The position numbers and the translations under genes were made by a program. Source: an uncultured Jannaschia sp. (GTDB taxonomy: Bacteria; Pseudomonadota; Alphaproteobacteria; Rhodobacterales; Rhodobacteraceae). From it: a stretch of 37,014 nt of DNA. The notes under the pieces are model-generated. The model saw only the letters and a program-made list of their open reading frames with translations, was not told the DNA's origin and did not search any database. The stretch covers positions 1-37,014 of the forward strand of contig NZ_CANLTR010000034.1 of assembly GCF_947494055.1 (NCBI RefSeq), read 5' to 3'. Positions 862 through 15,674 of the stretch are shown here, one piece after another (positions within the stretch are counted from its first letter, which is position 1; the number at the start of each line of letters is the position of its first letter).

Positions 862-1071
862 CCGGAACAGGCTGTTGGCTTTTGCCACGCACGGTTCCGA
901 TTTCCTTCTCAGCCTCGTGGGAAAGACGCTCGAAAGACGGGGGATCCGGGACGGGGTCGGAGCCATGTCGGAAATGCACACGGCCTGAAGCATCCCGGCT
1001 GTCTTGGGTTTGCTGCAGCGCGCGAGGTCCGGGGCAGAATTATCCGTCCTCAGTGTTTTCCGATTGCATCG

Positions 1072-2043
1072 TCAGAAATCCACCTCGATCGCGGCACCCG
1101 TCTCCTTCGCCCGTGCGACGACCGCCGAGGCGACGGCGAGGTCCTGCAGGCCGACGCCGGTGCCGTCGAAGAGGGTGATCTCGTCGTCACCGCTGCGGCC
1201 GGGATGGTCGCCGTTGATGACCTTGCCCAGTTCCACGACGTCGCCCTCCGCGATCAGGCCCTGTCCGACGGCATGCTGCGCCTCGCCGATGCTGATCGAC
1301 TGCGCGACCTCGTCGGTGAAGACCGTCGCGCGCGCCAGCAGCCTCGCCTCGACCTCCTGCTTGCCCTTCGTGTCGGTGCCCATGCAGGCGATATGCGTGC
1401 CGGGTGCGACATGCGCGTCCATGAGGCTGGGCGCGGTGGACGAGGTGATCGAGATGATCACGTCCGCCCGGGCGCCCAGATCGTCCAGCGAGACTTCCTC
1501 GAAGGGCAGGCCCAGCTCGGCGGCGCAGTCGGCGAGGCGGGACAGCATCTCGGGGTGGTAGTTCCAGCCGACGACCTTCTCGAAGGCGCGCTGCTTCACG
1601 GCGGCGCGCATCTGGAAGACCGACTGGTGCCCGGCCCCGATCATGCCGAGCACCTTCGCGTCCTTGCGCGCCAGGTGGGCGATGGAGACGGCCGAGGCGG
1701 CCGCGGTGCGAAGCGCCGTCAGCAGGTTGCCCCCCACCATCGCCGTGGGCTTGCCCGTCTCGGGGTTAAACAGGAAGACCGTGGACTGGTGGTTGATGAG
1801 GTCCCGGCGCTCCAGGTTGTGGGGCCAGTAGCCGCCCGCCTTCAGCCCGAGCGCGCCACCCACGGCGTCGACGCCGCCCTTGAAGCCGTAGAGCGCCTCC
1901 TCCGGCCCCGGCAGCGCCTCGCGCACCACGGGGAAGTTGCGGGCCTCGCCACGCGACATCGCGGCGAAGACGGCCTCCACGGCGGCGAAGGCGTCCTCGG
2001 GGGTGACGAGGTCGGCGATGGCGGCTTCTGGGACGATGATCAT
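1072..2043 (-). CDS. bhcD: Iminosuccinate reductase BhcD (ornithine cyclodeaminase/mu-crystallin family)
   Basis: A 323-residue protein of the ornithine cyclodeaminase/mu-crystallin family. It has an ATPEDAF-like start, the region LKAGGYWPHN, a dinucleotide-binding stretch around VLGMIGAGHQS (about residues 130-145) and the conserved DGTGVGLQDLAVAS near the end. In the BHAC, BhcD reduces iminosuccinate with NADH to L-aspartate, which returns as amino donor to BhcA. The assignment rests on family plus position as the last gene of bhcA-bhcB-bhcC-bhcD; by itself the sequence could be another cyclodeaminase-type dehydrogenase. It is separated from bhcC by 111 bases rich in palindromes, unlike the tight bhcA-B-C spacing. 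Confidence 0.9.
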   Translation of the reverse strand: MIIVPEAAIADLVTPEDAFAAVEAVFAAMSRGEARNFPVVREALPGPEEALYGFKGGVDAVGGALGLKAGGYWPHNLERRDLINHQSTVFLFNPETGKPTAMVGGNLLTALRTAAASAVSIAHLARKDAKVLGMIGAGHQSVFQMRAAVKQRAFEKVVGWNYHPEMLSRLADCAAELGLPFEEVSLDDLGARADVIISITSSTAPSLMDAHVAPGTHIACMGTDTKGKQEVEARLLARATVFTDEVAQSISIGEAQHAVGQGLIAEGDVVELGKVINGDHPGRSGDDEITLFDGTGVGLQDLAVASAVVARAKETGAAIEVDF

Positions 2044-2065
2044 GGCTGCTCCTGTCGGGAATTCG

Positions 2066-2135
2066 GGCGTCCGGACGCCTGCCGCGGAGATGGGCTGCCG
2101 CGTCCGGACGGCTTCGCCCGGCCTTCCGCCGGGCG
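2066..2135 (-). other. Cluster of palindromes between bhcC and bhcD
   Basis: Three inverted repeats fill the gap between bhcC and bhcD: a perfect 14-base palindrome at 2066-2079 (GGCGTCCGGACGCC), the 10-base core CGTCCGGACG repeated at 2101-2110, and a stem-loop at 2115-2135 with 8-bp arms (CGCCCGGC / GCCGGGCG) and a 5-base loop. No T-run follows, so this is not a standard terminator. It may protect the bhcABC message 3' end or reduce read-through into bhcD; that is inference. Confidence 0.5.
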
Positions 2136-2154
2136 CCTCCGCTTGTCGGTCGTC

Positions 2155-3315
2155 TCAGTAGGCCTTGCCGCGCGCCGAGACCGGCCAGAGCGTTTCGACC
2201 TTCCCGCCGCGCACGCCCACGTACCAGTCGTGGACGTTGCAGGTCGGATCGCAATGCCCGGGGACGAGGCGCAGCTTCTCGTTGACCTTGAGCACGCCCT
2301 TGGCATCCTCGATCACGCCGTGCTCGTCGGAGCACTTGACGTATTTCACGTCGTCGCGGCCGTAGATGAAGGGCAGGCCGCTATCCACCGACTGCGCCTT
2401 GAGGCCCGCGTCGCAGATCGCCTTGTCGGCCTTCGCGTGGCTCATCACGGTCGTCAGGATGAACAGTGCGTTCTCCCATTCGCCCGCGTCGATCCGGTTG
2501 CCGTTCTCGTCGAGGATGCGTCCGTAATCGGCGTCCATGAAGGCGTAGGAGCCGCATTGCAGCTCGTTGTAGACGCCCGATTTCCCCTCGAAGTAATAGG
2601 AGCCGGTACCGCCGCCTCCGACGATGTCGCATTCCATGCCCTCGGCTGCGAGCGCATCCACGGCCTCCTTCACCTGCGCGACGGCCACGTCGATCTTGGC
2701 GCGGCGGTCCTCGTAGCTGTCGAGGTGCTGCATCGCGCCCTGATAGGCCTGGAGGCCCGAGAACCGGAGGCCTTCGGCATCGCGGATCGCCCGCGCGATC
2801 TCGAGCACGGCGTCGGTGGTCCGCACGCCGCAGCGGCCCGCGCCGCAATCGATCTCGATCAGGCACTCGATCTCGGTCCCGTGCCGGACGGCGGCCGCCG
2901 ACAGGTCGGCCACGTTGGCCACGTCGTCGACGCAGACGATCGTGCGCGCGCCCAGCTTCGGCAGGCGCGCGAGGCGGTCGATCTTGGCCGGGTCCGTCAC
3001 CTGGTTGGAGACGAGGACGTCGGTGATGCCGCCGCGGGCGAAGACCTCCGCCTCCGACACCTTCTGGCAGCAGACGCCGCAGGCGCCGCCCATCTCCTGC
3101 TGCAGGAGCTGGACGTCGACGGATTTGTGCATCTTGCCGTGGCTGCGATGGCGCACGCCCATCTTCTGCGCGAAATCGCCCATCTTGCGGACGTTGCGCT
3201 CCAGCGCGTCGAGATCGAGGACGAGGCAGGGCGTCTGGATGTCGGCCTCGTCCATGCCCGGTACGGCGGGGACGTCGTAGCCGACTTCGAGATTGTCGTA
3301 GTTCAGGTCTTTCAT
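2155..3315 (-). CDS. bhcC: Beta-hydroxyaspartate aldolase BhcC (D-threonine aldolase-like, fold type III PLP)
   Basis: A 386-residue enzyme of the D-threonine aldolase/alanine racemase-like family (fold type III PLP). The PLP lysine lies in HGKMHKS (Lys61). Other family features are the TPCLVLDLDALERN start (about 28-41), the glycine-rich VGGGGTGSY segment and the carboxy-terminal metal-site motif PGHCDPTCNVHD, which in this family binds the divalent cation. In the BHAC it condenses glyoxylate with glycine to (2R,3S)-beta-hydroxyaspartate. It starts 12 bases after the bhcB stop, in the same transcript. D-threonine or 3-hydroxy-D-aspartate aldolase activity would be the alternative name outside this context. 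Confidence 0.92.
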   Translation of the reverse strand: MKDLNYDNLEVGYDVPAVPGMDEADIQTPCLVLDLDALERNVRKMGDFAQKMGVRHRSHGKMHKSVDVQLLQQEMGGACGVCCQKVSEAEVFARGGITDVLVSNQVTDPAKIDRLARLPKLGARTIVCVDDVANVADLSAAAVRHGTEIECLIEIDCGAGRCGVRTTDAVLEIARAIRDAEGLRFSGLQAYQGAMQHLDSYEDRRAKIDVAVAQVKEAVDALAAEGMECDIVGGGGTGSYYFEGKSGVYNELQCGSYAFMDADYGRILDENGNRIDAGEWENALFILTTVMSHAKADKAICDAGLKAQSVDSGLPFIYGRDDVKYVKCSDEHGVIEDAKGVLKVNEKLRLVPGHCDPTCNVHDWYVGVRGGKVETLWPVSARGKAY

Positions 3316-3327
3316 GTCTCGGTTCCT

Positions 3328-4314
3328 TTAGCTCTGCATCCAGGGCAGCTTGCCCAGGTCGACGTTGCCGCCGGTGATGACGACGCCCACGCGCTTGCCC
3401 GCGAAGACGTCCGGGTTCTTCAGGATCACGGCCAGCGGGACGGCGCAGGACGGCTCCATCACGATCTTCATCCGCTGCCAGGTCAGGCGCATCGCGTCGA
3501 CGATCTCGTCCTCGGACGCGGTCAGGATGTCGGTCACGTGGTTCGACACGAAATGCCAGGTCAGGTCCTTCAGCGGCACCTTCAACCCGTCCGCGACCGT
3601 GTTCGGCGCGTCGTCGGCGATGATGTGCCCGGCTCGGAAGGAACGCGCCGCGTCGTCGGCCTGTTCCGGCTCGGCCGCGATGATCTTCACCTCCGGCGCG
3701 ATATGCGACAGCGTCAGGCAGGTGCCCGAGATCATGCCGCCGCCGCCGATCGGCGCGACGATCATGTCGAGCGGGCCGCCATGCGCCTCGTCCATCTGCG
3801 CCATCATCTCGCGCGCGCATGTCCCCTGACCCGCGATCACGCGCGGGTCGTTGTAGGGATGCACGAAATCGGCGCCGGTCTCGGCCTGCACCTTCGCGAA
3901 GACCTCCTCGCGCGACGAGGTGGAGGGCTCGCATTCGGTGATGATGCCGCCATAGCCGCGCACGGCGTCCTTCTTGGCCTCCGGCGCCGTGTGCGGCATG
4001 ACCACGTGGCACGGGATGCCCCGCCGCCCCGCCGCGTAGCTGAGCGACAGCGCGTGGTTGCCCGACGAATGGGTGGCGACGCCCCGCTCCGCCAGCGCGT
4101 CCGAAAGCCCGAACACCGCGTTCGAGGCGCCCCGCACCTTGAAGGCGCCGGCCTTCTGGAAGTTCTCGCACTTGAAGAACATCTCGCAGCCGGCGCGCGC
4201 GTTCAAAAAGGACGAGGTCAGCACCGGCGTGCGGTGGATGTAGGGCGCGATCCGCTCGTGCGCCGCGATCACGTCGTCGAAGGTCGGGATGTCGAGCGTG
4301 TCGGTATCCTTCAT
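3328..4314 (-). CDS. bhcB: Beta-hydroxyaspartate dehydratase BhcB (threonine/serine dehydratase family)
   Basis: A 328-residue fold type II PLP enzyme. Visible features are the PLP lysine in AFKVRGA (Lys59), the SSGNHALSL loop that binds the cofactor or substrate carboxylate, and the tetraglycine phosphate loop GGGGMISG (about 186-193). In the BHAC it removes water from beta-hydroxyaspartate to give iminosuccinate, the BhcD substrate. Alone it would be annotated as threonine dehydratase or serine racemase; the neighbours decide the call. Its ATG overlaps the bhcA stop by four bases, indicating translational coupling. Confidence 0.92.
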   Translation of the reverse strand: MKDTDTLDIPTFDDVIAAHERIAPYIHRTPVLTSSFLNARAGCEMFFKCENFQKAGAFKVRGASNAVFGLSDALAERGVATHSSGNHALSLSYAAGRRGIPCHVVMPHTAPEAKKDAVRGYGGIITECEPSTSSREEVFAKVQAETGADFVHPYNDPRVIAGQGTCAREMMAQMDEAHGGPLDMIVAPIGGGGMISGTCLTLSHIAPEVKIIAAEPEQADDAARSFRAGHIIADDAPNTVADGLKVPLKDLTWHFVSNHVTDILTASEDEIVDAMRLTWQRMKIVMEPSCAVPLAVILKNPDVFAGKRVGVVITGGNVDLGKLPWMQS

Positions 4315-5498
4315 GCCGCCGCCCGCTTCGCGTCGCGCCCGTGACGGTAGGTCTCCTGCGCCGCGGCGACGCCCGAGCCGAGCTTCACCGGCAGGCCCAG
4401 ATCGACCATCACCATCTCGGCCACACCCAGCCCCGACAGCATCATCGCGTCGGTGAGCGAGCCCAGATGCCCGATCCGGAACACCTTGCCCGCGACGTCC
4501 CCGAGCCCGACGCCGAAGGCCATGCCGTAATCGCGCGCGGCGACCGTCACGACGTCGGTGGCGTTGAAGCCCTGCGGCGTTCGGATGGCCGAGACCGTGT
4601 CGGAATGAAGATCCGGCGACTTGGCGCAGAGCTCCATCCCCCAGGCGCCGACGGCGCTGCGGACGCCTTCGGCGATCCGGTGATGGCGGGCGAACACGTT
4701 CTCGAGTCCCTCCGACAGAAGCATCTCGCAGGACAGCTTCAGCGCGTTCATCAGGCCGACCGGCGGGGTATAGGGAAACGAGTTGTTGGCATATCCCTTT
4801 ATCATGTCCCTGATGTCGAAATAGGTCCGGGGCAGTGCCGCGGACTCCGCCGCCCGGAGCGCCTTCTCGGAGAAGCCGAGGATCGCCAGCCCGGCGGGCA
4901 GCATGAACCCCTTCTGCGAGCCGGTGACCGCGATGTCCACGCCCCAGTCGTCGAACCGGAAGTCGATCGACCCGATGGAGCTCACCCCGTCCACCAGAAA
5001 GAGCGCCGGATGCCCGGCGGCGTCGATCGCCCGGCGCACGCCCGCGATGTCCGACGTCACGCCGGTCGCCGTCTCGTTATGCGTGGCCAGGACCGCCTTG
5101 ATGGCGTGATCCTTGTCCGCGCGCAGCGCTTCCTCGAAGCCGTCGACCGGCATGCCCGCGCCCCACGGCACCTCGATGACCTGGACGTCCAGCCCGTGCC
5201 TGCGGCACATGTCGATCCAGCGGTCGCTGAACATGCCGTTGCGCCCCGCCAGGACCTTGTCGCCGGGGCTCAGCGTGTTGCTGAGCGCCACTTCCCAGCC
5301 GCCCGTGCCGGTCGCCGGATAGAGGAAGATCTTCGCGTCTTTGGACTTCAGGACATCGCGCACGCCCTTGAGGCAGGGATGGAGGATATCGGCGAAGGCC
5401 GGCGAGCGGTGGTCCATCGTGGGGATATGACAGGCCAGCCGCAACGCCTCGGGCATGTTGGTCGGACCGGGGATGAAGACGGGATTCTGAGCGCTCAT
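4311..5498 (-). CDS. bhcA: Aspartate-glyoxylate aminotransferase BhcA (class V aminotransferase)
   Basis: A 395-residue class V aminotransferase close to serine-glyoxylate aminotransferases. It starts with FIPGPTNMPEALR, has the cofactor-binding GTGGWEVAL and FLVDGVSSIG segments, and the Schiff-base lysine in TGSQKGFMLP (Lys196). In the BHAC it converts glyoxylate plus aspartate into glycine plus oxaloacetate, giving both the glycine used by BhcC and the C4 product. It is the first gene of the cluster, with an AGGAGG-like ribosome site just upstream (complement of cagcctcct at 5501-5509), and is divergent from bhcR. Confidence 0.92.
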   Translation of the reverse strand: MSAQNPVFIPGPTNMPEALRLACHIPTMDHRSPAFADILHPCLKGVRDVLKSKDAKIFLYPATGTGGWEVALSNTLSPGDKVLAGRNGMFSDRWIDMCRRHGLDVQVIEVPWGAGMPVDGFEEALRADKDHAIKAVLATHNETATGVTSDIAGVRRAIDAAGHPALFLVDGVSSIGSIDFRFDDWGVDIAVTGSQKGFMLPAGLAILGFSEKALRAAESAALPRTYFDIRDMIKGYANNSFPYTPPVGLMNALKLSCEMLLSEGLENVFARHHRIAEGVRSAVGAWGMELCAKSPDLHSDTVSAIRTPQGFNATDVVTVAARDYGMAFGVGLGDVAGKVFRIGHLGSLTDAMMLSGLGVAEMVMVDLGLPVKLGSGVAAAQETYRHGRDAKRAAA

Positions 5499-5554
5499 GG
5501 CAGCCTCCTGGACGCGGTTCGCGATACCATTAACCCGGCCGCATCCATTAAGCT

Positions 5555-5598
5555 ATTTTTCTGAAAATCTATTTCATAATTGCCAGATCGGGATTATA
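5555..5598 (-). promoter_or_regulatory. bhcA/bhcR intergenic control region with inverted repeats and a TATAAT box
   Basis: The AT-rich bhcA-bhcR spacer holds two overlapping inverted repeats: 5562-5576, TGAAA-N5-TTTCA, and 5555-5568, ATTTT-N4-AAAAT. The first has the size and shape of IclR-family operators. A perfect minus-strand TATAAT lies at 5593-5598 (plus strand ATTATA), about 95 bases from the bhcA ATG, without a strong -35 box. If this is the bhcA -10, the repeats fall just downstream of the transcription start. BhcR as the binder is an inference from divergent position. Confidence 0.5.
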
Positions 5599-5660
5599 GG
5601 TATTCAATACAGAAGGTTGCGTTTTTCATTAATCGCAGCGGCAAGCACTGGGAAATTCTC

Positions 5661-6500
5661 ATGAAAGAACCGAAGACCGGATCCGTCCGTCCGAGGGGGC
5701 GACCGCGCGCCTTCGTCGACAAGTCCAACCAGAACACGATCAGGACCCTTGACCGGGCCATGCGCGTCCTCGCCGGCCTCTCCCGGCTGGAGGAGGCGAC
5801 CCTCTCGCGGCTGGCGGACACGACGGGCGATCCGGCGGCGAGCGTGTATCGCATCCTCGTCACGCTGCAGGCGCACGGGATCGTCGAGCTGGAGCCGTCC
5901 GACCAGACCTGGCATGTCGGCCCCGGCGCGTTCCAGATCGGCTCCGCGTTCCTGCGCCGGACCTCGCTCATCGCCCGGGCGCAGGAGCCGATGCGCGATC
6001 TGATGGAGGCCACGGGGGAGACGGCCAATCTCGGAATCCATCGCGAGGGCGAGGTCCTGTTCGTCAGCCAGATCGAGACCCACGCCCCCATCCGCGCCTT
6101 CTTTCCGCCCGGAACGCGCGCCGACCTTCACGCATCGGGCATCGGCAAGGTGCTTCTGGCGGCGATGCCGTCCGATCTGCGAACCGGCCTGCTTCCGGCG
6201 TCCCTGCCCAGCTATACCGCGAACACGCTGTCCGAGACCCGTGCCCTGGCGGCCGAGCTCGCGCGGATCGAGACGCATGGCTACGCGGTCGACGACGAGG
6301 AGCGAAACGCGGGCATGCGCTGCATCGCCGCGCCCGTGCGCAACCTGCACGGCGAGGTCGTCGCCGGCCTGTCGATCTCGGGTCCCACGAGCCGCATCAC
6401 GAGCGACCGGGTCGTGGCATTGGCCGCGAAGGTCATCGCGTCCGCCGCAGCCCTGTCCGAACGCCTCGGCGCGCGGCCCGCGACGTCGCGCGTCGATTGA
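5661..6500 (+). CDS. bhcR: IclR-family transcriptional regulator BhcR
   Basis: A 279-residue IclR-type regulator: a basic amino-terminal arm (RPRGRPRAF), a winged helix-turn-helix over about residues 27-80 (TLDRAMRVLAGLS to HGIVELEPS), and an IclR effector domain with ASGIGKVLLAAMP and DDEERNAGMRCIAAPV. The ATG at 5661 is chosen over an open extension to 5580 because the homologous part begins after it and the extension would run into the promoter region; the ribosome site is weak (GGGAAA). It is divergent from bhcABCD, where BhcR is known in Paracoccus to control the BHAC genes in response to glyoxylate. Confidence 0.9.
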   Translation: MKEPKTGSVRPRGRPRAFVDKSNQNTIRTLDRAMRVLAGLSRLEEATLSRLADTTGDPAASVYRILVTLQAHGIVELEPSDQTWHVGPGAFQIGSAFLRRTSLIARAQEPMRDLMEATGETANLGIHREGEVLFVSQIETHAPIRAFFPPGTRADLHASGIGKVLLAAMPSDLRTGLLPASLPSYTANTLSETRALAAELARIETHGYAVDDEERNAGMRCIAAPVRNLHGEVVAGLSISGPTSRITSDRVVALAAKVIASAAALSERLGARPATSRVD

Positions 6501-6639
6501 CGTCCTTTCCGGGGCGCGCCCGTTCGCGCGAACCATACCGTCGGCGCACGCCAGGCCGAGGCTGGAAGGAGGGAACCGGAGCGGTCGCCATTCGGCCAGG
6601 GGCCGAGGTTCCGCAGGCCGGTCCGAGCTGCAAGAGGCC

Positions 6640-6682
6640 GGACGCCCGCCGGCCCGGCAGGCGCGCCGGCCGGGGCGCGTCC
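6640..6682. terminator. GC-rich stem-loop between convergent bhcR and panE-like gene
   Basis: A long stem is formed by GGACGC (6640-6645) with GCGTCC (6677-6682), extended inward by CC/GG and CCGGCC (6649-6654)/GGCCGG (6668-6673) with single-base bulges. It lies between convergent genes and overlaps the stop codon of the minus-strand gene. No T-run follows on either strand, so a factor-dependent or weak bidirectional terminator is the most that can be claimed. Confidence 0.35.
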
Positions 6683-7734
6683 TACCCGGCGACCGCTTCG
6701 TTGACGGCGAGCTTCTCGTCGATGATCCGGACGATCCGGCTGATCTCGGGATGCGAGGTGCCGAGCTGGCGGGCGATCATCTCGATCAGCTTGTCGACGC
6801 GCTCGATCCTGGCGGTCGCGGAGAAGACCGCGCGTGCCGCGGAGGAAGGCGCGCGCAGATGCTCCGCGGCCTTGGCGTATTTCTCGAACGGAACCATGTC
6901 GTCCGCCTCCGCGCCCAGCCGCATGACGAGGTCCGTCACGAACTCGTAGACCTCCCGCGACGTCTTCGCGTCGTCGTGGACCGCCTCGCGGATCGACCGC
7001 GGGCCGTCCGGCGTGATGCAGCGGTAATTGCCCGCGGCCAGCATCGCCCATTTCGCGAACGGAACGAAGGGCGAGTCGAAGACGCGGAACTTGACCGGAA
7101 CCTCCTTGCCGTCCACCCGGTAGGCATTGATCTCGTCCTGGAACGTCTCGAGCATGGCATCGAGCTTGGGGTCGTCGAACTTCGACACCTTGAAGTTGGT
7201 CGGAAGCCCGACATGGAGGACGTTCGGCGCCTCGTCGGGGGGCCGGTAGGCCTGGGGATCGGGGGAGCAGAGCGTCATCAGGGCGGGCTCGAAGCCGTCC
7301 CAGTCGGAGGGATTGGTATAGGCCTTCCTCAACTCCGAACAATCGAGCCCGGGTATGCGGTGCATGTAGGGCAGGGGCGGCATGTTCATGATCGACATGC
7401 AGGCGATCCGTGCCGCGGCGATGCGGGAGAGCAGGTCCGTCAGGACGGGATGCGCGTATTGCGGCTCCTGCATGGCGAGGCAGACCAGGTCGTAATCCTG
7501 GGGTCGCGCATCCCCGGGTGTCACCGCATCGACGGTTCCGGCCAGTGCGCCGGAATGGAAGCTGCGATGGGTGTCCTCGTCGCGCAGCTTGATGCGTACC
7601 TCCGTCCCGCGGGAATTGATCAGCGCCGCGGTTTCGGCCCGGCAGACGAGCGTGACGTGATGGCCTGCCGCCGCCAGCTTGGTGCCGAGAAGCGAGCCGT
7701 AGGAGGCACCCAGGATCAGGACCTTGTAAGTCAT
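6682..7734 (-). CDS. PanE/ApbA-family 2-ketoacid reductase; candidate oxalyl-CoA reductase
   Basis: A 350-residue protein of the ketopantoate reductase (ApbA/PanE) type. It has an amino-terminal NAD(P)-binding fold with KVLILGASYGSLLG (residues 4-17) and a basic residue after the second strand (VCRAE), and a helical carboxy domain with FAKWAMLAAGNY, whose Lys228 fits the family's conserved lysine, and APSSAARAVF near the end. It is longer than typical PanE (about 300) and stands between the BHAC and oxalate genes, not among pantothenate genes. In Methylorubrum extorquens a PanE-like enzyme (PanE2) reduces oxalyl-CoA to glyoxylate. The same role here would feed the BHAC; this is inference. The ATG at 7734 begins the Rossmann motif; the frame is open upstream but not conserved-looking. 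Confidence 0.7.
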   Translation of the reverse strand: MTYKVLILGASYGSLLGTKLAAAGHHVTLVCRAETAALINSRGTEVRIKLRDEDTHRSFHSGALAGTVDAVTPGDARPQDYDLVCLAMQEPQYAHPVLTDLLSRIAAARIACMSIMNMPPLPYMHRIPGLDCSELRKAYTNPSDWDGFEPALMTLCSPDPQAYRPPDEAPNVLHVGLPTNFKVSKFDDPKLDAMLETFQDEINAYRVDGKEVPVKFRVFDSPFVPFAKWAMLAAGNYRCITPDGPRSIREAVHDDAKTSREVYEFVTDLVMRLGAEADDMVPFEKYAKAAEHLRAPSSAARAVFSATARIERVDKLIEMIARQLGTSHPEISRIVRIIDEKLAVNEAVAG

Positions 7735-8059
7735 AGAGTAACTTTCTTTCTCGTTCCGGGCTCTTCCATGAAACTTAGTGTCTCTCTGGTCAAGAAAAAA
7801 ATGCTGCAACGCGGCGAGGAGGCTGGGCTGGAAGCATCCTCACAGGCAGTGACGGCAGAGCTGCCTCCAGTCCTGAAGCACTGACGGAAGACGCCTTCAC
7901 GGGGGGCTTTGCTCTGCATTCGCCGGCCGCCGGGGGCGGCCGTCGTTCGGTCGCGACGTGGCGCGACGTCACCCCGCACCGGATGCCGGCGCACGGGCGG
8001 CCGGGGACCGATGGCGCAGGACGCCGGGCGCGGATCGGCGCCCGGCCGGTCGGAGGATG
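7735..8059. other. Non-coding gap with a GC-rich hairpin
   Basis: No gene is supported here. A perfect hairpin lies at 7924-7942 (arms CGGCCGCC / GGCGGCCG, 3-base loop) about 120 bases after the sucD stop on the minus strand; it lacks a T-run. The stretch probably carries the end of the sucCD transcript and the promoter of the PanE-like gene, but no clear -35/-10 pair was recognised. Confidence 0.4.
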
Positions 8060-8968
8060 CTAGGAGGCGCGTCCAAGAAGTTCGACCAGGGTCTCGCCGA
8101 GTTTCGCCGGCGAAGGCGAGACCTGGATCCCGGCCGACCGCATGGCCTCGATCTTGTCCTCCGCGCCGCCTTTCCCGCCCGAGATGACGGCCCCCGCATG
8201 TCCCATCGTCCGCCCCGGCGGCGCCGTGCGGCCGGCGATGAAGCCGACCGTCGGCTTGGAACGACCCTTCTTGGCCTCGTCCTTCAGGAACTGGGTGGCG
8301 TCCTCCTCGGCGGAGCCGCCGATCTCGCCGATCATGATGATCGACTGGGTCTCCGGGTCGGCTAGGAACAGCTCTAGGATGTCGATGAACTCCGTTCCCT
8401 TGACCGGGTCGCCGCCGATGCCCACCGCGGAGGACTGGCCGAGGCCCGCCTGGGTGGTCTGGTAGACCGCCTCGTAGGTCAGCGTGCCCGAGCGCGACAG
8501 GACGCCGACCGAGCCCTTCTTGAAGATGGCCCCCGGCATGATCCCGATCTTGCATTCGTCGGGCGTCATGAGGCCCGGGCAGTTCGGCCCGATAAGCCGG
8601 CTGGACGAGGCGTCGAGCTTCTCTTTGACGCGCACCATGTCCTGGACCGGAACGCCCTCGGTGATGCAGGTGATGAGCTCGATGCCCGCGTCGATCGCCT
8701 CCTCGATCGCGGCGGCGGCGCCGGCGGGCGGCACGTAGATGACGCTGGCCGTGGCGCCGGTGGCGTCCTTGGCCTCGGCCACGCTGGCATAGATCGGCAG
8801 GGTCTCGCCGTTCGCGCCGGTCCAGTCGGTGCCGCCCTTCTTGGGATGCGTGCCCGCGACCATCTGCGTGCCGTGATAGGCCAGCGCCTGCTCGGTGTGG
8901 AAGGTGCCGGTCTTGCCGGTCAGGCCCTGGACGATGATCCGGGTGTTCTTGTCGATCAGAATGGACAT
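8060..8968 (-). CDS. sucD: Succinate-CoA ligase-type alpha subunit (SucD paralogue)
   Basis: A 302-residue SucD-like subunit. It has a CoA-binding Rossmann domain ([13 protein letters not shown], about 12-24), the IGPNCPG segment (126-132), the [11 protein letters not shown] loop, and the phosphohistidine motif [14 protein letters not shown] with His257. With the beta subunit it forms a nucleotide-dependent acyl-CoA synthetase. It starts 4 bases after sucC. Usual alphaproteobacterial sucCD genes sit beside sucAB and mdh, so this pair is likely a second copy dedicated to this pathway, for example to supply succinyl-CoA as CoA donor for oxalate. That role is inferred, and malate-CoA ligase cannot be fully excluded. 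Confidence 0.85.
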
Positions 8969-8972
8969 GGCG

Positions 8973-10166
8973 TTACCCCCGCACCGCGTTGACGATCTTC
9001 TGCGCGGCGTCGTCGAGATCGTCCGCCGCGATCACGTTCAGATCGCTCTCGTTGATGATCGCCTTGCCCTCCTTGACCTTCGTTCCCTCGAGCCGGACGA
9101 CGAGCGGCACCTGCAACCCGACCTCCTTCACCGCGGCGATCACGCCCTCGGCGATCACGTCGCAGCGCATGATGCCGCCGAAGATGTTGACGAGGATGCC
9201 CTTCACGTTCGGGTCCGAGGTGATGATCTTGAACGCCTCGGTCACCTTCTCCTTCGTGGCGCCGCCGCCCACGTCGAGAAAGTTCGCGGGCTCCGCCCCG
9301 TAGAGCTTGATGATGTCCATCGTCGCCATCGCGAGGCCGGCGCCATTGACCATGCAGCCGATCTCGCCGTCGAGCGCGATGTAGGCCAGGTCGTGCTTGG
9401 ACGCCTCGATCTCCTTCGCGTCCTCCTCGGTCTCGTCGCGGTATTCGACGATGTCGGGATGGCGGAACAGGGCGTTGCCGTCGAACGACACCTTCGCGTC
9501 GAGGACCTGGACGTCGTTGGACTTGGTGACGATCAGCGGATTGATCTCGAGCAGGCTCATGTCCTTCGACACGAACGCCTCGTAGAGCGCCTGGAAGAGC
9601 TCGATCCCCTGCGTGCGGGCGGCATCGGTCAGCTGCAGGGCGTCGGCGATCTTCTCGGCATCGGCCGGCGTGCAGCCCGCCGAGGGCGCGACGGCGATCG
9701 TGTGGATCCGGTCCGGTGTCTCCTCGGCGACGGTCTCGATGTCCATGCCGCCCTCGGTGGAGGCGACGAACGAGGTCCGGCCGGTCTCGCGATCGACGAG
9801 GATCGACAGGTACAGCTCCCGGTCGATATCCGCGCCCGCCTCGACATAGAGACGGTTGACCTGCTTGCCGGCGGGTCCGGTCTGCTTGGTCACGAGCGTC
9901 TTGCCGAGCATCTCGCGCACGTTCGACAGCGCTTCCTCGGCCGAGAACGAGACGCGCACGCCGCCCTTGGCGTCGTCGCCCAACTCCTTGAAGCGGCCCT
10001 TGCCGCGGCCGCCGGCATGGATCTGGCTCTTGACGACCCAGACCGGGCCCGGCAGCGCGCCGATGGCGGCCTCGGCCTTGTCCGGATCGGTGACCACGAC
10101 CCCCTCCGCGACCAGGGCGCCGAAGCCCTTCAGGACCTCCTTGGCCTGATGTTCGTGGATATTCAT
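8973..10166 (-). CDS. sucC: Succinate-CoA ligase-type beta subunit (SucC paralogue)
   Basis: A 397-residue ATP-grasp subunit. It starts [12 protein letters not shown] and has the nucleotide-binding [11 protein letters not shown] (about 47-57), [26 protein letters not shown] and the substrate-site text [13 protein letters not shown] near residue 325. GGIMRCD is the succinate-type motif, whereas malate-CoA ligases (MtkA) as I remember them have a diverged AGINRCD there, so succinate is the better guess. It is 22 bases downstream of the isochorismatase-family gene and 4 bases upstream of sucD, so the three appear to be one minus-strand operon under the divergent GntR control region. Confidence 0.87.
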
Positions 10167-10188
10167 TGACGCCTCCCTCGCGCGTGCC

Positions 10189-10731
10189 TCACTTGATCAG
10201 CGGCAGCATTTCCTTGAACGCTTCCGTCCCGGCCCGTCCCAGCCATTCGAAGACGACCATCTCGGTCGTGACGATGTTGACGCCCCCCGCACCGAGCCGC
10301 GCGAGGCAGGCCGCCTCGCTCTCGATCGTGCGAGACGCGGTGGCATCGGAGACCACGAAGACCTCGAAGCCTTCCTCGACCAGGCTGGCCGCGGTCTGCA
10401 CGACGCAGATATGCGCTTCCATCCCGACCAGGATCGCCTGCGAGCGGTCCAGGGCACGGAACGCCGCGGCGAAGCCGGGCTCCTCCATGCAGGAGAAGTG
10501 CATCTTCGGCAGAATCGGTGCGTCGCCCGCGACTCGCGCCACCTCGGCGACCGTATGGCCGAGCCCCTGGGGATATTGTTCGGTGAGCAGGGCCGGAACG
10601 CCGGTCTTGGCGGCGGCCTGGAGCAGGGTGCGGGTATTGCGAATCGTCCGGGCGGGCGCCTGCATCGCGGGCACCAGGCGTTCCTGCATGTCGATGACGA
10701 TCAGCGCCGAATCTTGCGCCCGGATCAGCAC
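10189..10731 (-). CDS. Isochorismatase-family cysteine hydrolase
   Basis: A 180-residue isochorismatase-like (YcaC-type) hydrolase. The expected catalytic triad is visible: Asp14 in LIVIDMQER, Lys76 in ILPKMHFS and Cys109 in [12 protein letters not shown], with the cis-peptide-type VGMEAH segment before the cysteine. Its substrate is unknown; members act on isochorismate, nicotinamide, N-carbamoyl compounds, oxamate-type amides and others. It is the first gene of the minus-strand operon with sucC-sucD, opposite gntR. An amide or ureide precursor of oxalate or glyoxylate (for example oxamate or oxalurate) would fit the context, but nothing in the sequence shows this. Confidence 0.85.
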
Positions 10732-10765
10732 GTCACTCGTTCCCCCCTGAATATTATCGGTATTA

Positions 10766-10790
10766 GGTATACCAGCCTGCGGTCTGTCAA
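10766..10790 (-). promoter_or_regulatory. Promoter of the isochorismatase-sucCD operon with operator-like palindrome
   Basis: On the minus strand a perfect TTGACA -35 box (complement of 10785-10790) is followed, about 19 bases on, by TAATAC. The perfect palindrome GGTATACC (10766-10773) lies between these elements, where a bound repressor would block the promoter. The same palindrome recurs at 10853-10860 before gntR. The core GT-AT-AC resembles FadR-subfamily GntR operators. Confidence 0.5.
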
Positions 10791-10816
10791 TGCCTTTGTG
10801 GGGCGCCGTAAAGATT

Positions 10817-10860
10817 TTGAAAAGGAATTGACGGACGGCATAATTGGTGTGAGGTATACC
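10817..10860 (+). promoter_or_regulatory. Promoter of gntR-oxc operon with operator-like palindrome
   Basis: A plausible sigma-70 promoter is TTGAAA (10817-10822), a 16-base spacer and CATAAT (10839-10844). The palindrome GGTATACC at 10853-10860 would cover the expected start point, giving autorepression by the downstream GntR protein. An alternative -35, TTGACG at 10828-10833, has no good partner. The two palindrome copies are 87 bases apart centre to centre. Confidence 0.5.
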
Positions 10861-10925
10861 AAATACGGAGAGCGGGAATACTGGTCCGGGAGGGACCCGT
10901 CCGCGATCCTGGGGGGACGAAGCCG

Positions 10926-11642
10926 GTGCTGATTGGCGAAATGCTCAGCCCTATTTCCGAGAGCTACACGCTGAAGGATCACATCTTCGGCGTGCTGCGC
11001 ACCGCCATCCTCGACATGGACATCTACGCGCCGGACGCCGATCTGCGCCTGGACGAGCGGCGACTGGCCGAGCGGCTGGCGGTCTCGCGGACCCCGATCC
11101 GCGAGGCGCTGGCGCGGCTCTCCCAGGAGGGGCTGGTGGAGATCGTGCCCCGCAAGGGCGCCTTCGTGCGGCGCAAGACCCGCAAGGAGATCCTGGAGAT
11201 CGTCGTGACCTGGGCGGCGCTGGAGAGCATGGCCGCGCGCCTGGCGACCGAGGTGGCGACCGACGCCCAGTTCAAGCAGCTGCGCAAGTTCGCCATGAAG
11301 CACAGCGACGACGCCGCCCGCGCGGATCTCGAGGAATATTCCGACGCCAACATCCGCTTTCACCTGATGGTCCTCGAACTGTCCGGGTGCGAGCTGCTGC
11401 GGACCACCGCCGAGGGATTGCTCGTGCACATGCAGGCGATCCGGCGCCGCGCGATGGGCGAGAGCGACCGGGCGTACCGGTCGGTCGTCGACCACATGGA
11501 GATCATCGAGGCCCTGTCGGCACGGGATGCCGATCTGGCCGCGTGCCGCGTGCGTGAGCACACGATGCGGCTGTACAATCATATCAGCAAGACTTGGACG
11601 CGGATCGAGACGCTGGGCGCCTCGAAAGACGCCGCAGTCTGA
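10926..11642 (+). CDS. GntR-family (FCD domain) transcriptional regulator
   Basis: A 238-residue FadR-subfamily GntR regulator. The winged helix-turn-helix covers about residues 15-83 ([26 protein letters not shown], then [16 protein letters not shown]), and the all-helical FCD effector domain follows, with [14 protein letters not shown] and a [10 protein letters not shown] segment carrying candidate metal-binding residues. The GTG at 10926 has a strong GGGGGGA ribosome site at 10911-10917; an ATG at 10941 is the alternative. It is the first gene of the oxalate operon, 26 bases before oxc, and is divergent from the isochorismatase-sucCD operon, so it probably controls both. The effector is unknown; oxalate, glyoxylate or a CoA ester are candidates. 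Confidence 0.88.
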
Positions 11643-11668
11643 GCCAAACGAGGAATACGAGGACCCAT

Positions 11669-13447
11669 ATGACCCCATCCGACACGGCAGCCACCCTAGA
11701 TGCGGAGTCGACGGATCCCGCATCGCGTGACCTGACGGACGGCTTCCACCTCCTGATCGACGCGCTGAAGCTGAACGGCGTCGAGACGATCTACAACGTT
11801 CCGGGCATTCCGATCACCGATCTGGGCCGCTACGCGCAGGCCGAGGGCCTCCGCGTCCTGTCCTTCCGCCACGAGCAGAGCGCGGGCTACGCCGCCGCCG
11901 CCGCCGGGTTCCTGACGAAGAAGCCCGGCATCTGCATGACCGTCTCGGCACCCGGCTTCCTGAACGGATTGACGGCCCTCGCGCACGCGACCACGAATTG
12001 CTGGCCGATGATCCTCATCTCGGGCTCGTCGGAGCGCGAGGTCGTCGACCTCCAGCAGGGCGATTACGAGGAGATGGACCAGCTCGCCATCGCGCGGCCG
12101 CATTGCAAGGCGGCCTACCGCATCCTGCACGCCCGCGACATCGGCGTGGGCGTCGCCCGCGCGATCCGCTCGGCGCTGACCGGACGGCCGGGCGGCGTCT
12201 ATCTCGACATTCCGGGCGCGCTCCTGGGCCAGGTCATGGACGAGGCCGAGGGCGCCGCGTCGCTCATCAAGGTCGTCGATCCGGCCCCGGCGCATTTCCC
12301 CGGCCCCGACGCCGTGGCCCGCGCGGTCGAGGTGCTGCAGGGCGCCAAGAAGCCGCTCATCATCCTCGGCAAGGGCGCGGCCTACGCGCAGGCGGACGAG
12401 ACCGTGAAGCGCCTGGTCGAGACCCTGGGCTTCCCGTACCTGCCGATGTCGATGGCCAAGGGGCTGCTGCCCGACACCCATCCCCTCTGCGCCTCGGCGG
12501 CGCGCTCGATGGTGCTGAAGGAGGCGGATTGCGTCTTCCTGATCGGCGCGCGGCTCAACTGGCTGCTCGGCCACGGCAAGGGCAAGCAATGGGGCGAGCC
12601 GGGGTCCAAGACCTTCGTCCAGATCGACATCGAGCCCAAGGAGATCGACTCGAACCAGCCGATCGCGGCACCGCTCGTCGGTGACATCGAGTCGTGCTGC
12701 ACCGCGCTGCTCGATGCGATCGGCGACGACTGGCAGAAGCCGTCCGAGGACTGGACCGGCGGGGTCAGCACGAAGGTGAAGGGCAACGTCGAGAAGATGT
12801 CCTCGCAGCTTCGGAACAACTCGAACCCGATGAACTACTACGCCGCGCTTGGCGTCCTGAAGAAGGCCATCGCCGACCGTCCGGACACGATCCTGGCGAA
12901 CGAGGGCGCCAACGCGCTCGACATGACGCGCTCGATCGTCGACATCCACAAGCCGCGCAAGCGGATCGACGTGGGCACCTGGGGCATCATGGGCGTCGGC
13001 ATGGGCAACGCCATCGCCGCGGCGGTGGAGACCGGCTGCCCCGTCCTCGCGGTCGAGGGCGACAGTGCCTTCGGCTTCTGCGGCATGGAGGTGGAGACGA
13101 TCTGCCGATACAACCTGCCGATCTGCATCGTCGTCATGAACAACAACGGAATCTACCGCGGCGACGACGTGAACAAGTCGGGCGGGTCCGATCCGGCGCC
13201 GACCGTGTTCGTGCCCGATGCGCGCTACGACCGGATGATGGAGGCCTTCGGCGGCCACGGCGTCCACGCCACCACCCCGGACGAGCTCGGCCGTGCGGTG
13301 GAGGAGGCGCTGTCCTCGGGCCGGCCCACGCTCATCAACGCGGTGATCGACCCGAAGGCCGGCAAGGAAAGCGGCAACATCGGCAGCCTCAACCCGCAAT
13401 CCGTGGTCGCGAAGATGCGCGAGCAGGCCAAGATCGGAGCCGCGTGA
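11669..13447 (+). CDS. oxc: Oxalyl-CoA decarboxylase
   Basis: A 592-residue thiamin-diphosphate enzyme that converts oxalyl-CoA to formyl-CoA and CO2 in the cytoplasm. It has the amino-terminal PYR domain with the activating glutamate in [14 protein letters not shown] (Glu69), a central domain, and the PP domain with the ThDP/Mg motif EGDSAFGF to NNNGIYRG (about residues 461-494). [13 protein letters not shown] and [15 protein letters not shown] agree with oxalyl-CoA decarboxylase rather than acetolactate synthase. Its length is near the Oxalobacter enzyme (568) with a short amino extension. The ATG at 11669 has a GAGGA site; frc follows 26 bases later. Confidence 0.95.
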
Positions 13448-13473
13448 ATGCGGACGAACGGAGGAAATCTGCA

Positions 13474-14748
13474 ATGAAAGCTCTTGAAGGCGTAAAGGTC
13501 CTCGATTTCACCCACGTCCAGTCGGGACCGACCTGCACGCAGCTGCTGGCCTGGTTCGGCGCCGACGTGATCAAGGTGGAGCGGCCGGGCGTGGGCGACG
13601 CGACGCGCAAGCAGCTCATCGACAAGCCCGGCGCGGACAGCCTCTATTTCACGATGCTGAACCACAACAAGCGCTCGATCGAGATCAACTCCAAGAACGA
13701 GATCGGGAAGGAGGTCCTGACCAAGCTGATCGAGACCTGCGACGTCCTGGTGGAGAACTTCGCGCCGGGCGCGCTGGACCGGATGGGTTTCTCCTGGGAG
13801 AACATCCAGAAGATCAATCCGCGCATCATCGTCGCGTCGGTCAAGGGCTTCGGTCCCGGCAAGTACGAGGATTGCAAGGTCTACGAGAACGTCGCGCAAT
13901 GCGCGGGCGGCTCGGCCTCGACCACCGGATTCCTCGACGGCCCGCCGGTGGTGACCGGCGCGCAGATCGGCGACTCGGGCACCGGGCTGCATCTCGCGCT
14001 CGGCATCCTGGCCGCGCTCTTCCAGCGCGAAAAGACCGGTAAGGGCCAGAAGGTGCTGGCGCCGATGCAGGACGGGGTAATCAACCTCTGCCGCGTCAAG
14101 CTGCGCGACCAGCAGCGGCTCGAGACCGGCCCGCTCACCGAATATTCCCAGTACGGCGAGGGCATCGAGTTCGGCGACGCGACACCGCGCGCCGGCAACG
14201 ACTCGGGCGGTGGCCAGCCCGGGCGGATCCTCAAGTGCAAGGGCTGGGAGACCGATCCCAACGCCTACACCTACTTCATCACCCAGGCCGCCGTCTGGGA
14301 GAAGATCTGCGACGTGATCGGCAAGCCCGAGTGGAAGACCGATCCGGATTTCGCGACGCCCAAGGCGCGGCTGCCGCGCCTGAACCAGATCTTCGGCACG
14401 ATCGAGGACTGGACGATGACCAAGACCAAGTTCGAGGTCATGGAGATCTGCAATCCCCACGACATTCCCGTCGGCCCGATCCTGTCGATGAAGGAGATCG
14501 CCGAGGACGAGGGACTGCGCAAGACCGGCACCATCGTCGAGGTCGATCATCCCGAGCGCGGCAAGTACCTGACGGTCGGTTGCCCGATCAAGATGTCCGA
14601 CAGCCCCGTCGAAGTGACGCGCTCGCCGCTTCTGGGCGAGCACACGGTGGAGATCCTGAGCCAGGTGCTGGGTTATTCCGGCGATGAGCTCAAGCGGGTC
14701 GTCGCCTCCGGCGCGGTCGGCGATACCGAGAAGGTGGCGGCGGAATGA
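13474..14748 (+). CDS. frc: Formyl-CoA:oxalate CoA-transferase
   Basis: A 424-residue family III CoA-transferase, close in length to the Oxalobacter enzyme (428). It begins [17 protein letters not shown], has the catalytic aspartate in QIGDSGTG (Asp167, equivalent to Asp169 of the characterised enzyme), and a glycine loop DSGGGQPG that closes over the active site. It exchanges CoA between formyl-CoA and oxalate, giving oxalyl-CoA and formate, and so primes Oxc. The ATG at 13474 has a GGAGGAAA ribosome site. The stop overlaps the next start by four bases, coupling it to the formyltransferase gene. Confidence 0.95.
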
Positions 14749-15674
14749 GCAAGCGCATGCGCCTGATCGTCATGGGTCAGCAGGCCTTCGGCAAGGACGT
14801 GCTGGCAAAGCTGCTGGATCACGGCCAGGACGAGGTGGTCGCGGTCTATTGCGAACCCGATCGCGAGGGAAAGCCGGTCGATCCGATCAAGGAACTGGCG
14901 ATCGAGAAGGGCCTGCCGGTCTACCAGCCGGCCCATTTCAAGGATCAGGCCGACATCGATCAGCTGGCCGAGCTGAACGCGGACCTGATGCTGATGGCCT
15001 TCGTCAACGTCTTCGTGCCCGAGGCGGCGCGGGACACGCCGCGGTTGGGCTCGACCTGCTTCCATCCCTCGCTGCTGCCGCTGCATCGCGGCCCCTCGGC
15101 AGTGAACTGGCCGATCATCATGGGCAGCACCGAGAGCGGGTTCTGCTGGTTCTATCCGAGCGACGGCCTCGACGAGGGCGACGTCCTGATGGACTGGACC
15201 TGCCCGATCGAGCCCGACGACACGGTGATCGATCTCTACTTCAAGAAGATCTATCCCGCCGCCGTCGATTCCGCGCTGGAGGTCGTCGACCTGTACCGGT
15301 CCGGCAACCCGCCCCACAAGGAGCAGGACGAGGCCCGCGCGACCTACGAGCGGCGCTGCACCAAGAAGCACGCGCGGATCGACTGGAACAAGCCCGTCAA
15401 GCAGGTCTACGACCTGATCCGCGGCACCAATCCCTCGCCCGGTGCCTGGACCACCCTGAACGGCGAGGAGGTCCAGATCTTCGACGCCGCCCGCCTGCCC
15501 GGCGACGGGGTGTCGGGCAAGATCATCGAGATCACGGACGAGGGACTGTCGGTCCAGTGCATCGGCGGCCGCGTCCTGGTCAAACGGGTACGACCCGCCG
15601 GCGGCGGCAAGGTCTCGGCGACCGAATGGGCGGCTTCGGCCGGCCTCTCGGCCGGCGATCCGCTCGGTTCCTGA
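14745..15674 (+). CDS. Formyltransferase/10-formyl-THF hydrolase-like protein (ALDH1L hydrolase-domain homologue)
   Basis: A 309-residue protein with a formyl-transferase amino domain (about 1-205) and a formyl_trans_C-type barrel (about 215-300). Conserved features are [17 protein letters not shown] (His107) and [10 protein letters not shown] (Asp143), which match the catalytic His/Asp of the hydrolase domain of 10-formyl-THF dehydrogenase (ALDH1L1). It is closer to that domain than to Met-tRNA formyltransferase, as seen in AVNW and RIDWNKP. No aldehyde dehydrogenase part is fused. It overlaps frc by four bases and precedes fhs, so its work is with formyl-CoA or formyl-folate. Either 10-formyl-THF hydrolysis or formyl transfer from formyl-CoA to THF is possible; the sequence does not decide. 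Confidence 0.8.

What the first reader, a model, noticed from the sequence alone, without database searches (positions are those of the whole stretch)
1072..14748. Oxalate assimilation wired directly into the beta-hydroxyaspartate cycle
The window joins a complete bhcABCD/bhcR cluster to frc/oxc, with a PanE/ApbA-like reductase exactly between them. In Methylorubrum a PanE-like enzyme reduces oxalyl-CoA to glyoxylate, which then enters the serine cycle. Here the neighbouring glyoxylate sink is the BHAC. The predicted route is oxalate -> oxalyl-CoA (Frc) -> glyoxylate (PanE-like) -> oxaloacetate (BhcA-D), with no carbon lost in the BHAC. I know of no description of this combined route, but could not search for one.
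Basis: partly seen in the sequence, partly recalled or inferred. Interest (0 to 1): 0.85.

Follow-up and report, generated by a model that had tools for sequence, protein, structure and literature searches.

The report
Oxalate genes beside a glyoxylate cycle
One bacterial genome carries genes for eating oxalate right beside genes of a carbon-saving cycle that uses glyoxylate, joined by a little-studied enzyme that probably turns activated oxalate into glyoxylate; if so it is a new way of wiring two known pathways together, but no activity has been measured.

Summary
The genes are real: bhcD/C/B/A/R, oxc and frc pass curated cut-offs.

The "PanE-like" protein (PanEL) has the ketopantoate-reductase fold but is not of the ApbA2 type, which I take to be the PanE2 family and which also lies near oxc in other genomes. 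PanEL is an uncharacterised family tied to oxalate genes: in 394 sampled genomes of the window's family, 33 of 37 with oxc have it, against 7 of 357 without; it is within 15 kb of oxc in 17 of the 33. In a second family it seems to replace the ApbA2 type.

Best reading: oxalate to oxalyl-CoA (Frc, CoA donor probably from SucCD) to glyoxylate (PanEL) to oxaloacetate (BHAC). No glyoxylate carboligase passes the cut-off here.

Against "wired directly": bhc-oxc adjacency was seen only here; in 26 of 26 other genomes with both, they are on different contigs or over 480 kb apart. Activity and direction are unshown. A new variant built from known modules.

The parts
344..979 (-). IS66 transposase fragment flanking the bhc genes
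   Evidence: PF03050/PF13817 matches
1072..2043 (-). bhcD, iminosuccinate reductase
   Evidence: NF045643 570.5 bits, cut-off 500
2155..3315 (-). bhcC, 3-hydroxy-D-aspartate aldolase
   Evidence: NF045642 753.9 bits, cut-off 690
3328..4314 (-). bhcB, beta-hydroxyaspartate dehydratase
   Evidence: NF045641 594.4 bits, cut-off 550
4311..5498 (-). bhcA, aspartate-glyoxylate aminotransferase
   Evidence: NF045640 719.2 bits, cut-off 650
5661..6500 (+). bhcR, IclR-type regulator (the listed ORF opens at 5580; the ATG at 5661 fits the alignment with Ruegeria pomeroyi BhcR better)
   Evidence: NF045644 359.4 bits, cut-off 350; alignment
6682..7734 (-). PanEL: ketopantoate-reductase-fold dehydrogenase of an uncharacterised family, candidate oxalyl-CoA reductase
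   Evidence: weak PF02558; AF2 pLDDT 94; Foldseek to ketopantoate reductases, TM to 0.67; linkage to oxc/frc
8060..8968 (-). sucD-like CoA ligase alpha subunit
   Evidence: PF02629, PF00549, PF13607
8973..10166 (-). sucC-like ADP-forming CoA ligase beta subunit, second copy in the genome
   Evidence: NF001913 556.6 bits, cut-off 370; another copy on contig C8 at 71% identity
10189..10731 (-). isochorismatase-fold hydrolase
   Evidence: PF00857
10926..11642 (+). GntR-type regulator, divergent from the sucCD side; no family scan was made of it, the name comes from homologues annotated GntR
   Evidence: homologues annotated GntR upstream of oxc
11669..13447 (+). oxc, oxalyl-CoA decarboxylase
   Evidence: TIGR03254 953.8 bits, cut-off 739.4, scanned as the longer ORF from 11594
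13474..14748 (+). frc, formyl-CoA:oxalate CoA-transferase
   Evidence: TIGR03253 711.0 bits, cut-off 504.2, scanned as the longer ORF from 12694
14745..15674 (+). formyltransferase-like protein
   Evidence: PF00551/PF02911; fmt 143.9 bits, under the cut-off of 201.5
15702..17369 (+). fhs, formate-tetrahydrofolate ligase
   Evidence: NF010030 933.5 bits, cut-off 652
17382..18236 (+). universal stress protein, recurrent in the cluster
   Evidence: PF00582
18356..21517 (+). tctC, tctB, tctA transporter, presumed oxalate importer (tctB named by position and by the La 6 annotation, not scanned)
   Evidence: PF03401, PF01970; Tct genes in the La 6 plasmid cluster

Best explanation
This is an oxalate-utilisation island in which the glyoxylate sink is the beta-hydroxyaspartate cycle. 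Oxalate is imported (Tct, inferred) and activated to oxalyl-CoA by Frc (family shown). Part of it is decarboxylated by Oxc to formyl-CoA, giving formate, CO2 and reducing power (known chemistry; flux inferred). The rest is reduced by PanEL to glyoxylate (inferred). Each reduction frees CoA and removes the formyl-CoA that Frc would use as donor, so an ATP-paid donor is needed; the linked second SucCD probably supplies it, as succinyl-CoA or by ligating oxalate directly (inferred). Two glyoxylate then become one oxaloacetate through BhcA-D (gene identity shown, flux inferred). PanEL is a separate, uncharacterised branch of the ketopantoate-reductase fold that takes the place of the PanE2/ApbA2 type in these oxalate clusters. 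The BHAC block was probably placed beside the oxalate block in this lineage, since relatives carry the same oxalate block without it.
For: Curated families for Bhc, Oxc and Frc. PanEL-oxc co-occurrence 33 of 37 against 7 of 357, p 9e-37; within 15 kb in 17 of 33. Tree of 101 PanEL rows: the window sits in a supported 9-row clade (100/99), 8 of 9 oxalate-linked counting the window. Replacement: among 52 oxc+ genomes of the Burkholderiaceae-type sample, ApbA2 type in 23, PanEL in 15, both in 1, one-sided p 4e-4. Fold: pLDDT 94, ketopantoate reductases among the top Foldseek hits. PanEL neighbours other than oxalate genes: isocitrate lyase, class V aminotransferases related to BhcA, glyA and hprA; a ScfR/RamB-type acyl-CoA regulator. 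sucCD recurs beside oxc. No glyoxylate carboligase over cut-off in the genome. Precedents: ApbA2 (PMC7486775 passages) and PanE2, which was characterised as an oxalyl-CoA reductase (PMC8411744 passage).
Against: No activity is known to me for any PanEL member; the first nine Foldseek rows are D-mandelate dehydrogenases, i.e. 2-oxoacid reductases. Only 29 of 101 tree rows are oxalate-linked, though many others lie on short contigs or stretches. Four oxc genomes lack PanEL and none of these four has the ApbA2 type either; 15 of 52 oxc+ genomes of the second family have neither type. bhc and oxc were not seen close together in 26 of 26 other genomes with both. BhcC enrichment among oxc genomes is modest: 27 of 37 against 163 of 357 at E <= 1e-170 (p 0.002), 22 of 37 against 146 of 357 over the curated cut-off (p 0.04). 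None of these tests is corrected for kinship. P. denitrificans, with BHAC, cannot grow on oxalate (PMC11323563 section 5); whether it has oxc was not checked.
Confidence: 0.58

Rival explanations
1. The oxalate block runs the other way: PanEL oxidises glyoxylate (from glycolate) to oxalyl-CoA, which Oxc and Frc burn to CO2 and formate. BHAC and this branch then compete for one glyoxylate pool.
For: C. necator ApbA2 was proposed to act in this direction in glycolate breakdown, with a secondary role (PMC7486775 passages). In Curvibacter PanEL sits beside isocitrate lyase, a glyoxylate source. P. fluorescens uses glyoxylate dehydrogenase, oxalate CoA-transferase and succinyl-CoA synthetase to make oxalate and ATP (PMC2752808 abstract and passages).
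Against: The block has its own transporter and a divergent regulator, and the La 6 plasmid twin carries glyA, an aminotransferase and hprA beside PanEL and ppc further off, which look like assimilation genes.
Confidence: 0.17
2. PanEL is a 2-oxoacid reductase (for example of glyoxylate or hydroxypyruvate) that has nothing to do with oxalyl-CoA.
For: Best Foldseek hits are D-mandelate dehydrogenases; family members occur beside glyoxylate genes without oxc nearby; some genomes hold several copies (8 matches, one of them partial, in Afipia).
Against: Strong tie to oxc and frc and apparent replacement of the ApbA2 type; La 6 has a separate 2-hydroxyacid-dehydrogenase gene (annotated hprA) close by; a glyoxylate reductase would divert the product during growth on oxalate.
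Confidence: 0.15
3. Two unrelated modules lie side by side by chance of transposition; bhc serves glycolate or purine-derived glyoxylate and the oxalate block works alone. (This can be true together with either rival above, so the odds do not add to one.)
For: Adjacency not seen in the other 26 genomes with both; IS66 piece at the edge; a bhc block lies next to another pathway, allantoin/urate genes, in Sulfitobacter OXR-159; the same-genus genome G310 has no oxc over cut-off, no PanEL and no BhcC at the thresholds used.
Against: Even by chance, glyoxylate made by PanEL would meet the only BhcC match in the genome, and no glyoxylate carboligase is over cut-off.
Confidence: 0.25

Closest known systems
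Oxalyl-CoA reductase route of Methylobacterium/Methylorubrum extorquens (PanE2; Schneider et al. 2012, not held, known to me from recall, from a reference entry and from passages of PMC7486775 and PMC8411744)
   Same: Oxalate activated to oxalyl-CoA, part decarboxylated, part reduced to glyoxylate by a PanE-type enzyme
   Different: Sink is the serine cycle there (recalled), BHAC here; the reductase here appears to belong to a different subfamily
Oxalate use in Cupriavidus necator (ApbA2, frc-oxc, glycerate pathway; PMC7486775 passages)
   Same: Reductase gene close to frc-oxc
   Different: Assimilation by the glycerate pathway; the text says C. necator lacks beta-hydroxyaspartate aldolase
Oxalate cluster on plasmid pLA6_002, Paracoccaceae bacterium La 6 (CP031587.1)
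   Same: sucDC-isochorismatase, gntR-oxc-frc-fmt-fhs-usp-tct and PanEL in one block
   Different: PanEL is followed by glyA, an aminotransferase below the BhcA cut-off and hprA, with ppc and a formate dehydrogenase beyond sucDC: serine-cycle-like sink; no bhcB, bhcC or bhcD match in the 40-kb stretch
Beta-hydroxyaspartate cycle of Paracoccus denitrificans (PMC11323563, section 5 read; Schada von Borzyskowski et al. 2019, recalled and seen as a reference)
   Same: bhcABCD with divergent bhcR
   Different: Fed by glycolate oxidation; P. denitrificans does not grow on oxalate
Oxalate-making TCA variant of Pseudomonas fluorescens (PMC2752808, abstract and passages)
   Same: Acylating glyoxylate dehydrogenase, oxalate CoA-transferase and succinyl-CoA synthetase act together
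   Different: Runs from glyoxylate to oxalate; genes not compared here

Membership tests
Beta-hydroxyaspartate cycle cluster | All four enzymes over curated equivalog cut-offs | tested here: met
   BhcA, B, C, D all over cut-off
Beta-hydroxyaspartate cycle cluster | Divergent bhcR regulator | tested here: met
   359.4 bits, cut-off 350 (narrow); divergent from bhcA
Frc/Oxc oxalate degradation | Both enzymes over equivalog cut-offs | tested here: met
PanE2/ApbA2 oxalyl-CoA reductases | About 50% or more identity to the ApbA2-type subfamily | tested here: not met
   Against 9 ApbA2-type proteins the main matches are 25-33% over 78-135 N-terminal residues; the genome has no ApbA2-type match at E <= 1e-60. 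The ApbA2 type was identified by position near oxc and by hits in Methylobacterium and Cupriavidus plasmids, not with the published sequences
PanE2/ApbA2 oxalyl-CoA reductases | Gene close to frc-oxc | tested here: met
PanE2/ApbA2 oxalyl-CoA reductases | Reduces oxalyl-CoA to glyoxylate | not testable with these tools
   needs an enzyme assay
Ketopantoate reductase fold | Fold match over the whole chain | tested here: met
   TM (query) 0.57-0.67, 12-18% identity among the ketopantoate reductases in the first 30 rows
True ketopantoate reductase | NCBIfam apbA_panE cut-off | tested here: not met
   22.0 bits against a cut-off of 141.35
Ketopantoate reductase fold | Catalytic Lys and Glu in register | tested here: inconclusive
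   Lys228 and Glu311 are invariant in 32 PanELs, but the profile alignment puts them one and two residues out of register; the catalytic roles are recalled
Succinate or malate CoA ligase | Curated cut-off | tested here: met
   succinate-CoA ligase beta model met (556.6/370), malate-CoA ligase beta model not met (481.9/604); true substrate unknown

The most novel reading that the evidence does not exclude
PanEL is a new, non-orthologous family of oxalyl-CoA reductase / CoA-acylating glyoxylate dehydrogenase, found in Rhodobacterales, Hyphomicrobiales and Burkholderiales, which together with a dedicated SucCD CoA donor forms a transferable 'oxalate to glyoxylate' cassette that plugs into whichever glyoxylate sink is at hand: serine cycle in La 6, BHAC in this window.
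Probability: 0.45. Interest if true: 0.7.

Novelty: new variant of a known kind. Interest (0 to 1): 0.52.

Why it matters
It would give a third way to assimilate oxalate after reduction to glyoxylate (beside the serine and glycerate routes), add an enzyme family to a step for which few sequences are characterised, and make a puzzle testable: why BhcR binds its promoter more tightly with oxalate in a bacterium that cannot grow on oxalate. In 27 of 37 oxc genomes of this family sample a BhcC-type aldolase (E <= 1e-170) is also present, so the combined metabolism could be more common than the gene adjacency.

Tried and rejected
Rejected: PanEL as an orthologue of the ApbA2 type. Rejected: conserved bhc-oxc linkage (of 26 other genomes with both, 24 have them on different contigs, which in drafts does not prove distance, and 2 have them 482 and 529 kb apart). 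Considered and not decided: malate-CoA ligase reading of sucCD (cut-off not met); the 7731-8555 and 10725-11723 minus-strand ORFs as genes (no family in the scans; they overlap sucD, or gntR and the start of oxc), taken as non-coding frames. The class V aminotransferase beside PanEL in La 6 is not BhcA by cut-off (592.9/650). BhcR pocket: only an alignment of window and Ruegeria BhcR was made, nothing concluded. Catalytic residue mapping by profile alignment was inconclusive. Literature: 9 searches, all in open-licence PMC papers only, showed no paper that joins oxalate assimilation with the BHAC, going by listings and by passages of 9 papers (of the 18 papers listed I looked into 3: PMC11323563, PMC7486775, PMC11166783). 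Subscription papers, among them Schneider et al. 2012, were not readable, so absence from print is not shown. The ApbA2-type threshold (E <= 1e-115, at least 56% identity) was set after seeing the gap; a looser E <= 1e-83 adds only G314. By the strict threshold the C. campinensis gene itself (52%) would fall outside.
Full report
What is there. The window (contig C34 of a 4.75-Mb draft) carries, from left: an IS66 piece (344-979), bhcD-C-B-A on the minus strand, bhcR on plus, PanEL on minus, sucD-sucC-isochorismatase on minus, then gntR-oxc-frc-formyltransferase-fhs-usp-tctCBA on plus. All five Bhc proteins, Oxc and Frc are over curated cut-offs.

PanEL and oxalate. 394 genomes of the window's family, drawn evenly from a larger group, were searched; the tool gives no family name, but G239 has a contig of exactly the length of the La 6 plasmid (180,236 bases), so I take it as Rhodobacteraceae/Paracoccaceae. 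PanEL (E <= 1e-20) is in 40, Oxc over cut-off in 37, both in 33; Oxc without PanEL in 4, PanEL without Oxc in 7 (Fisher p 9e-37, no kinship correction). G381, whose Oxc match is in two pieces under the cut-off, counts as without Oxc; two of the 40 PanEL hits are distant (36 and 43% identity). The two genes are on one contig in 21 of 33 genomes and within 15 kb in 17 of 33, one of these (G245) with only a partial PanEL there. Similar blocks without bhcB, bhcC or bhcD were seen in Sedimentitalea xiamensis (L002), in unnamed relatives (L137-L140, L142) and, rearranged, on plasmids of Paracoccaceae bacterium La 6 and Paracoccus alcaliphilus. In a tree of 101 PanEL rows the window lies in a supported clade of 9 rows, 8 of them oxalate-linked counting the window; the ninth is a 4.7-kb contig with sucD and PanEL. 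Overall 29 of 101 rows, the window included, have oxc or frc within 20 kb or on the stretch held; the label needs 11 changes against a shuffled mean of 25.4. Many of the other rows are short contigs or stretches.

PanEL is not of the ApbA2 type. A sample of 299 genomes was drawn from the family of G394, the genome of a Comamonadaceae MAG (L045); I call it Burkholderiaceae-type (GTDB naming recalled). 52 of 299 match C. campinensis oxc DNA at E <= 1e-100, one (G679) only in part. Of 17 of these genomes that lack PanEL, 10 have a classical PF02558 protein (96-110 bits) within about 11 kb of oxc in the capped list. [quoted passage not shown] I had no PanE2 or ApbA2 reference sequence, so this link is an inference. 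The M. bullatum and C. campinensis plasmid records have no PanEL match at E <= 1e-5 (4 of 72,556 plasmid records do). PanEL aligns to nine ApbA2-type proteins only weakly: main matches 25-33% over 78-135 N-terminal residues, E 2e-6 to 9e-3; profile-profile probability 94.7%. Among the 52, PanEL is in 15, the ApbA2 type in 23, both in 1 (G495), neither in 15 (one-sided p 4e-4). By hand count, 13 of the 23 have the ApbA2 type within 11 kb of oxc and 6 of the 15 have PanEL beside frc; no genome of one group carries the other gene. Of the window family's 37 oxc+ genomes 28 were tested (9 were left out because of the 80-handle limit): none has the ApbA2 type at that threshold, and one (G314) has two 47-50% matches. 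The four oxc+ genomes without PanEL have no ApbA2 type either. The pattern is what functional replacement would give, but lineage effects are not excluded.

Fold. An AlphaFold2 model from the window protein and 31 of the 47 loci has pLDDT 94. Foldseek finds D-mandelate dehydrogenases first, then ketopantoate reductases, over the whole chain; the latter with TM 0.57-0.67 and 12-18% identity in the first 30 rows. This supports an NAD(P)-dependent reductase but not its substrate. By sequence PanEL is far below the ketopantoate-reductase cut-off (22.0/141.35).

Context of PanEL elsewhere. Near it lie glyA, an aminotransferase related to BhcA and hprA in La 6; isocitrate lyase in Curvibacter; BhcA-like aminotransferases in Afipia and Pseudolabrys and a BhcB-like gene in L039/L173; and a ScfR/RamB-type regulator in L137 and L155 (RamB model 390.7 bits, cut-off 700) and perhaps La 6, where the annotation names another regulator. 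Against a single role, other neighbours have nothing obvious to do with either compound: queA, tgt, a radical-SAM enzyme, a peptidase. Oxalate on one side and glyoxylate on the other point to oxalyl-CoA and glyoxylate as the substrate pair (inference).

CoA balance. Reducing oxalyl-CoA frees CoA, so the formyl-CoA loop of Frc/Oxc cannot sustain it alone (inference). A second sucCD sits in the block; the genome's other sucC is 71% identical. sucCD recurs beside oxc in La 6, P. alcaliphilus, C. campinensis and several relatives. In P. fluorescens the three activities work together in the opposite direction (PMC2752808, abstract and passages).

BHAC as the sink. The only BhcC match found in the genome (E <= 1e-170) is the window's, and no glyoxylate carboligase is over cut-off, while 1 of 14 control genomes is. 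Malate synthase and serine-route genes of this genome were not searched. BhcC (E <= 1e-170) is in 27 of 37 oxc genomes and 163 of 357 others (p 0.002); over the curated cut-off in 22 of 37 and 146 of 357 (p 0.04). In the 26 other genomes with both, BhcC and Oxc are on different contigs (24) or 482 and 529 kb apart (2). The same-genus genome G310 has no PanEL, no Oxc over cut-off and no BhcC at these thresholds. So the adjacency looks like a recent, lineage-specific assembly, with an IS66 piece at its edge. A bhc block also lies by another pathway, allantoin/urate genes, in Sulfitobacter OXR-159.

Regulation. Oxalate strengthens binding of P. denitrificans BhcR to its promoter, and that species does not grow on oxalate; its authors doubt that the effect matters in vivo (PMC11323563, section 5 read). 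Whether the window's BhcR behaves so is unknown.

Verdict. The mechanism is likely but unproven, with the corrections above. The combined route was not seen in the listings and passages from 9 open-licence literature searches. The strongest novelty is the PanEL family as a separate candidate oxalyl-CoA reductase, rather than the adjacency. The odds are those I first set; the checks above changed wording, not the balance.

Noticed in passing
window 21597-23351: An ORF with only weak, sub-cut-off Zeta_toxin/CPT kinase matches, whose homologues also lie near oxalate genes: 44% beside oxc-frc in Methylobacterium bullatum (L050:13574-15337) and 59% in L140. Role unknown.
   Followed up: partly
window 10189-10731: An isochorismatase-fold hydrolase recurs beside the oxalate genes; it might release oxalate from an amide such as oxamate (speculation).
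   Followed up: no
L203 (Sulfitobacter sp. OXR-159 plasmid): bhcABCD next to urate/allantoin breakdown genes, another glyoxylate source: BHAC as a plug-in sink.
   Followed up: no
G395 (Afipia sp. 1NLS2; L011, L018, L022, L027): Eight PanEL-family matches in one genome, one of them partial, so the family may have more than one substrate.
   Followed up: no
L013:4986-11101 (Curvibacter): PanEL directly after isocitrate lyase, with a ThDP-enzyme-like ORF upstream (26% to Oxc) that may be glyoxylate carboligase (not tested).
   Followed up: partly
L005:6532-11053 (Rhodospirillaceae): A BhcC-like gene (457.6 bits, cut-off 690) lies between queA and tgt, with PanEL next.
   Followed up: no
window 7735-8059: A relative carries a ScfR-type regulator between panEL and sucD (L137:7855-9279), and L138 has an ORF of like size there; the window has only a 325-bp gap.
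   Followed up: partly
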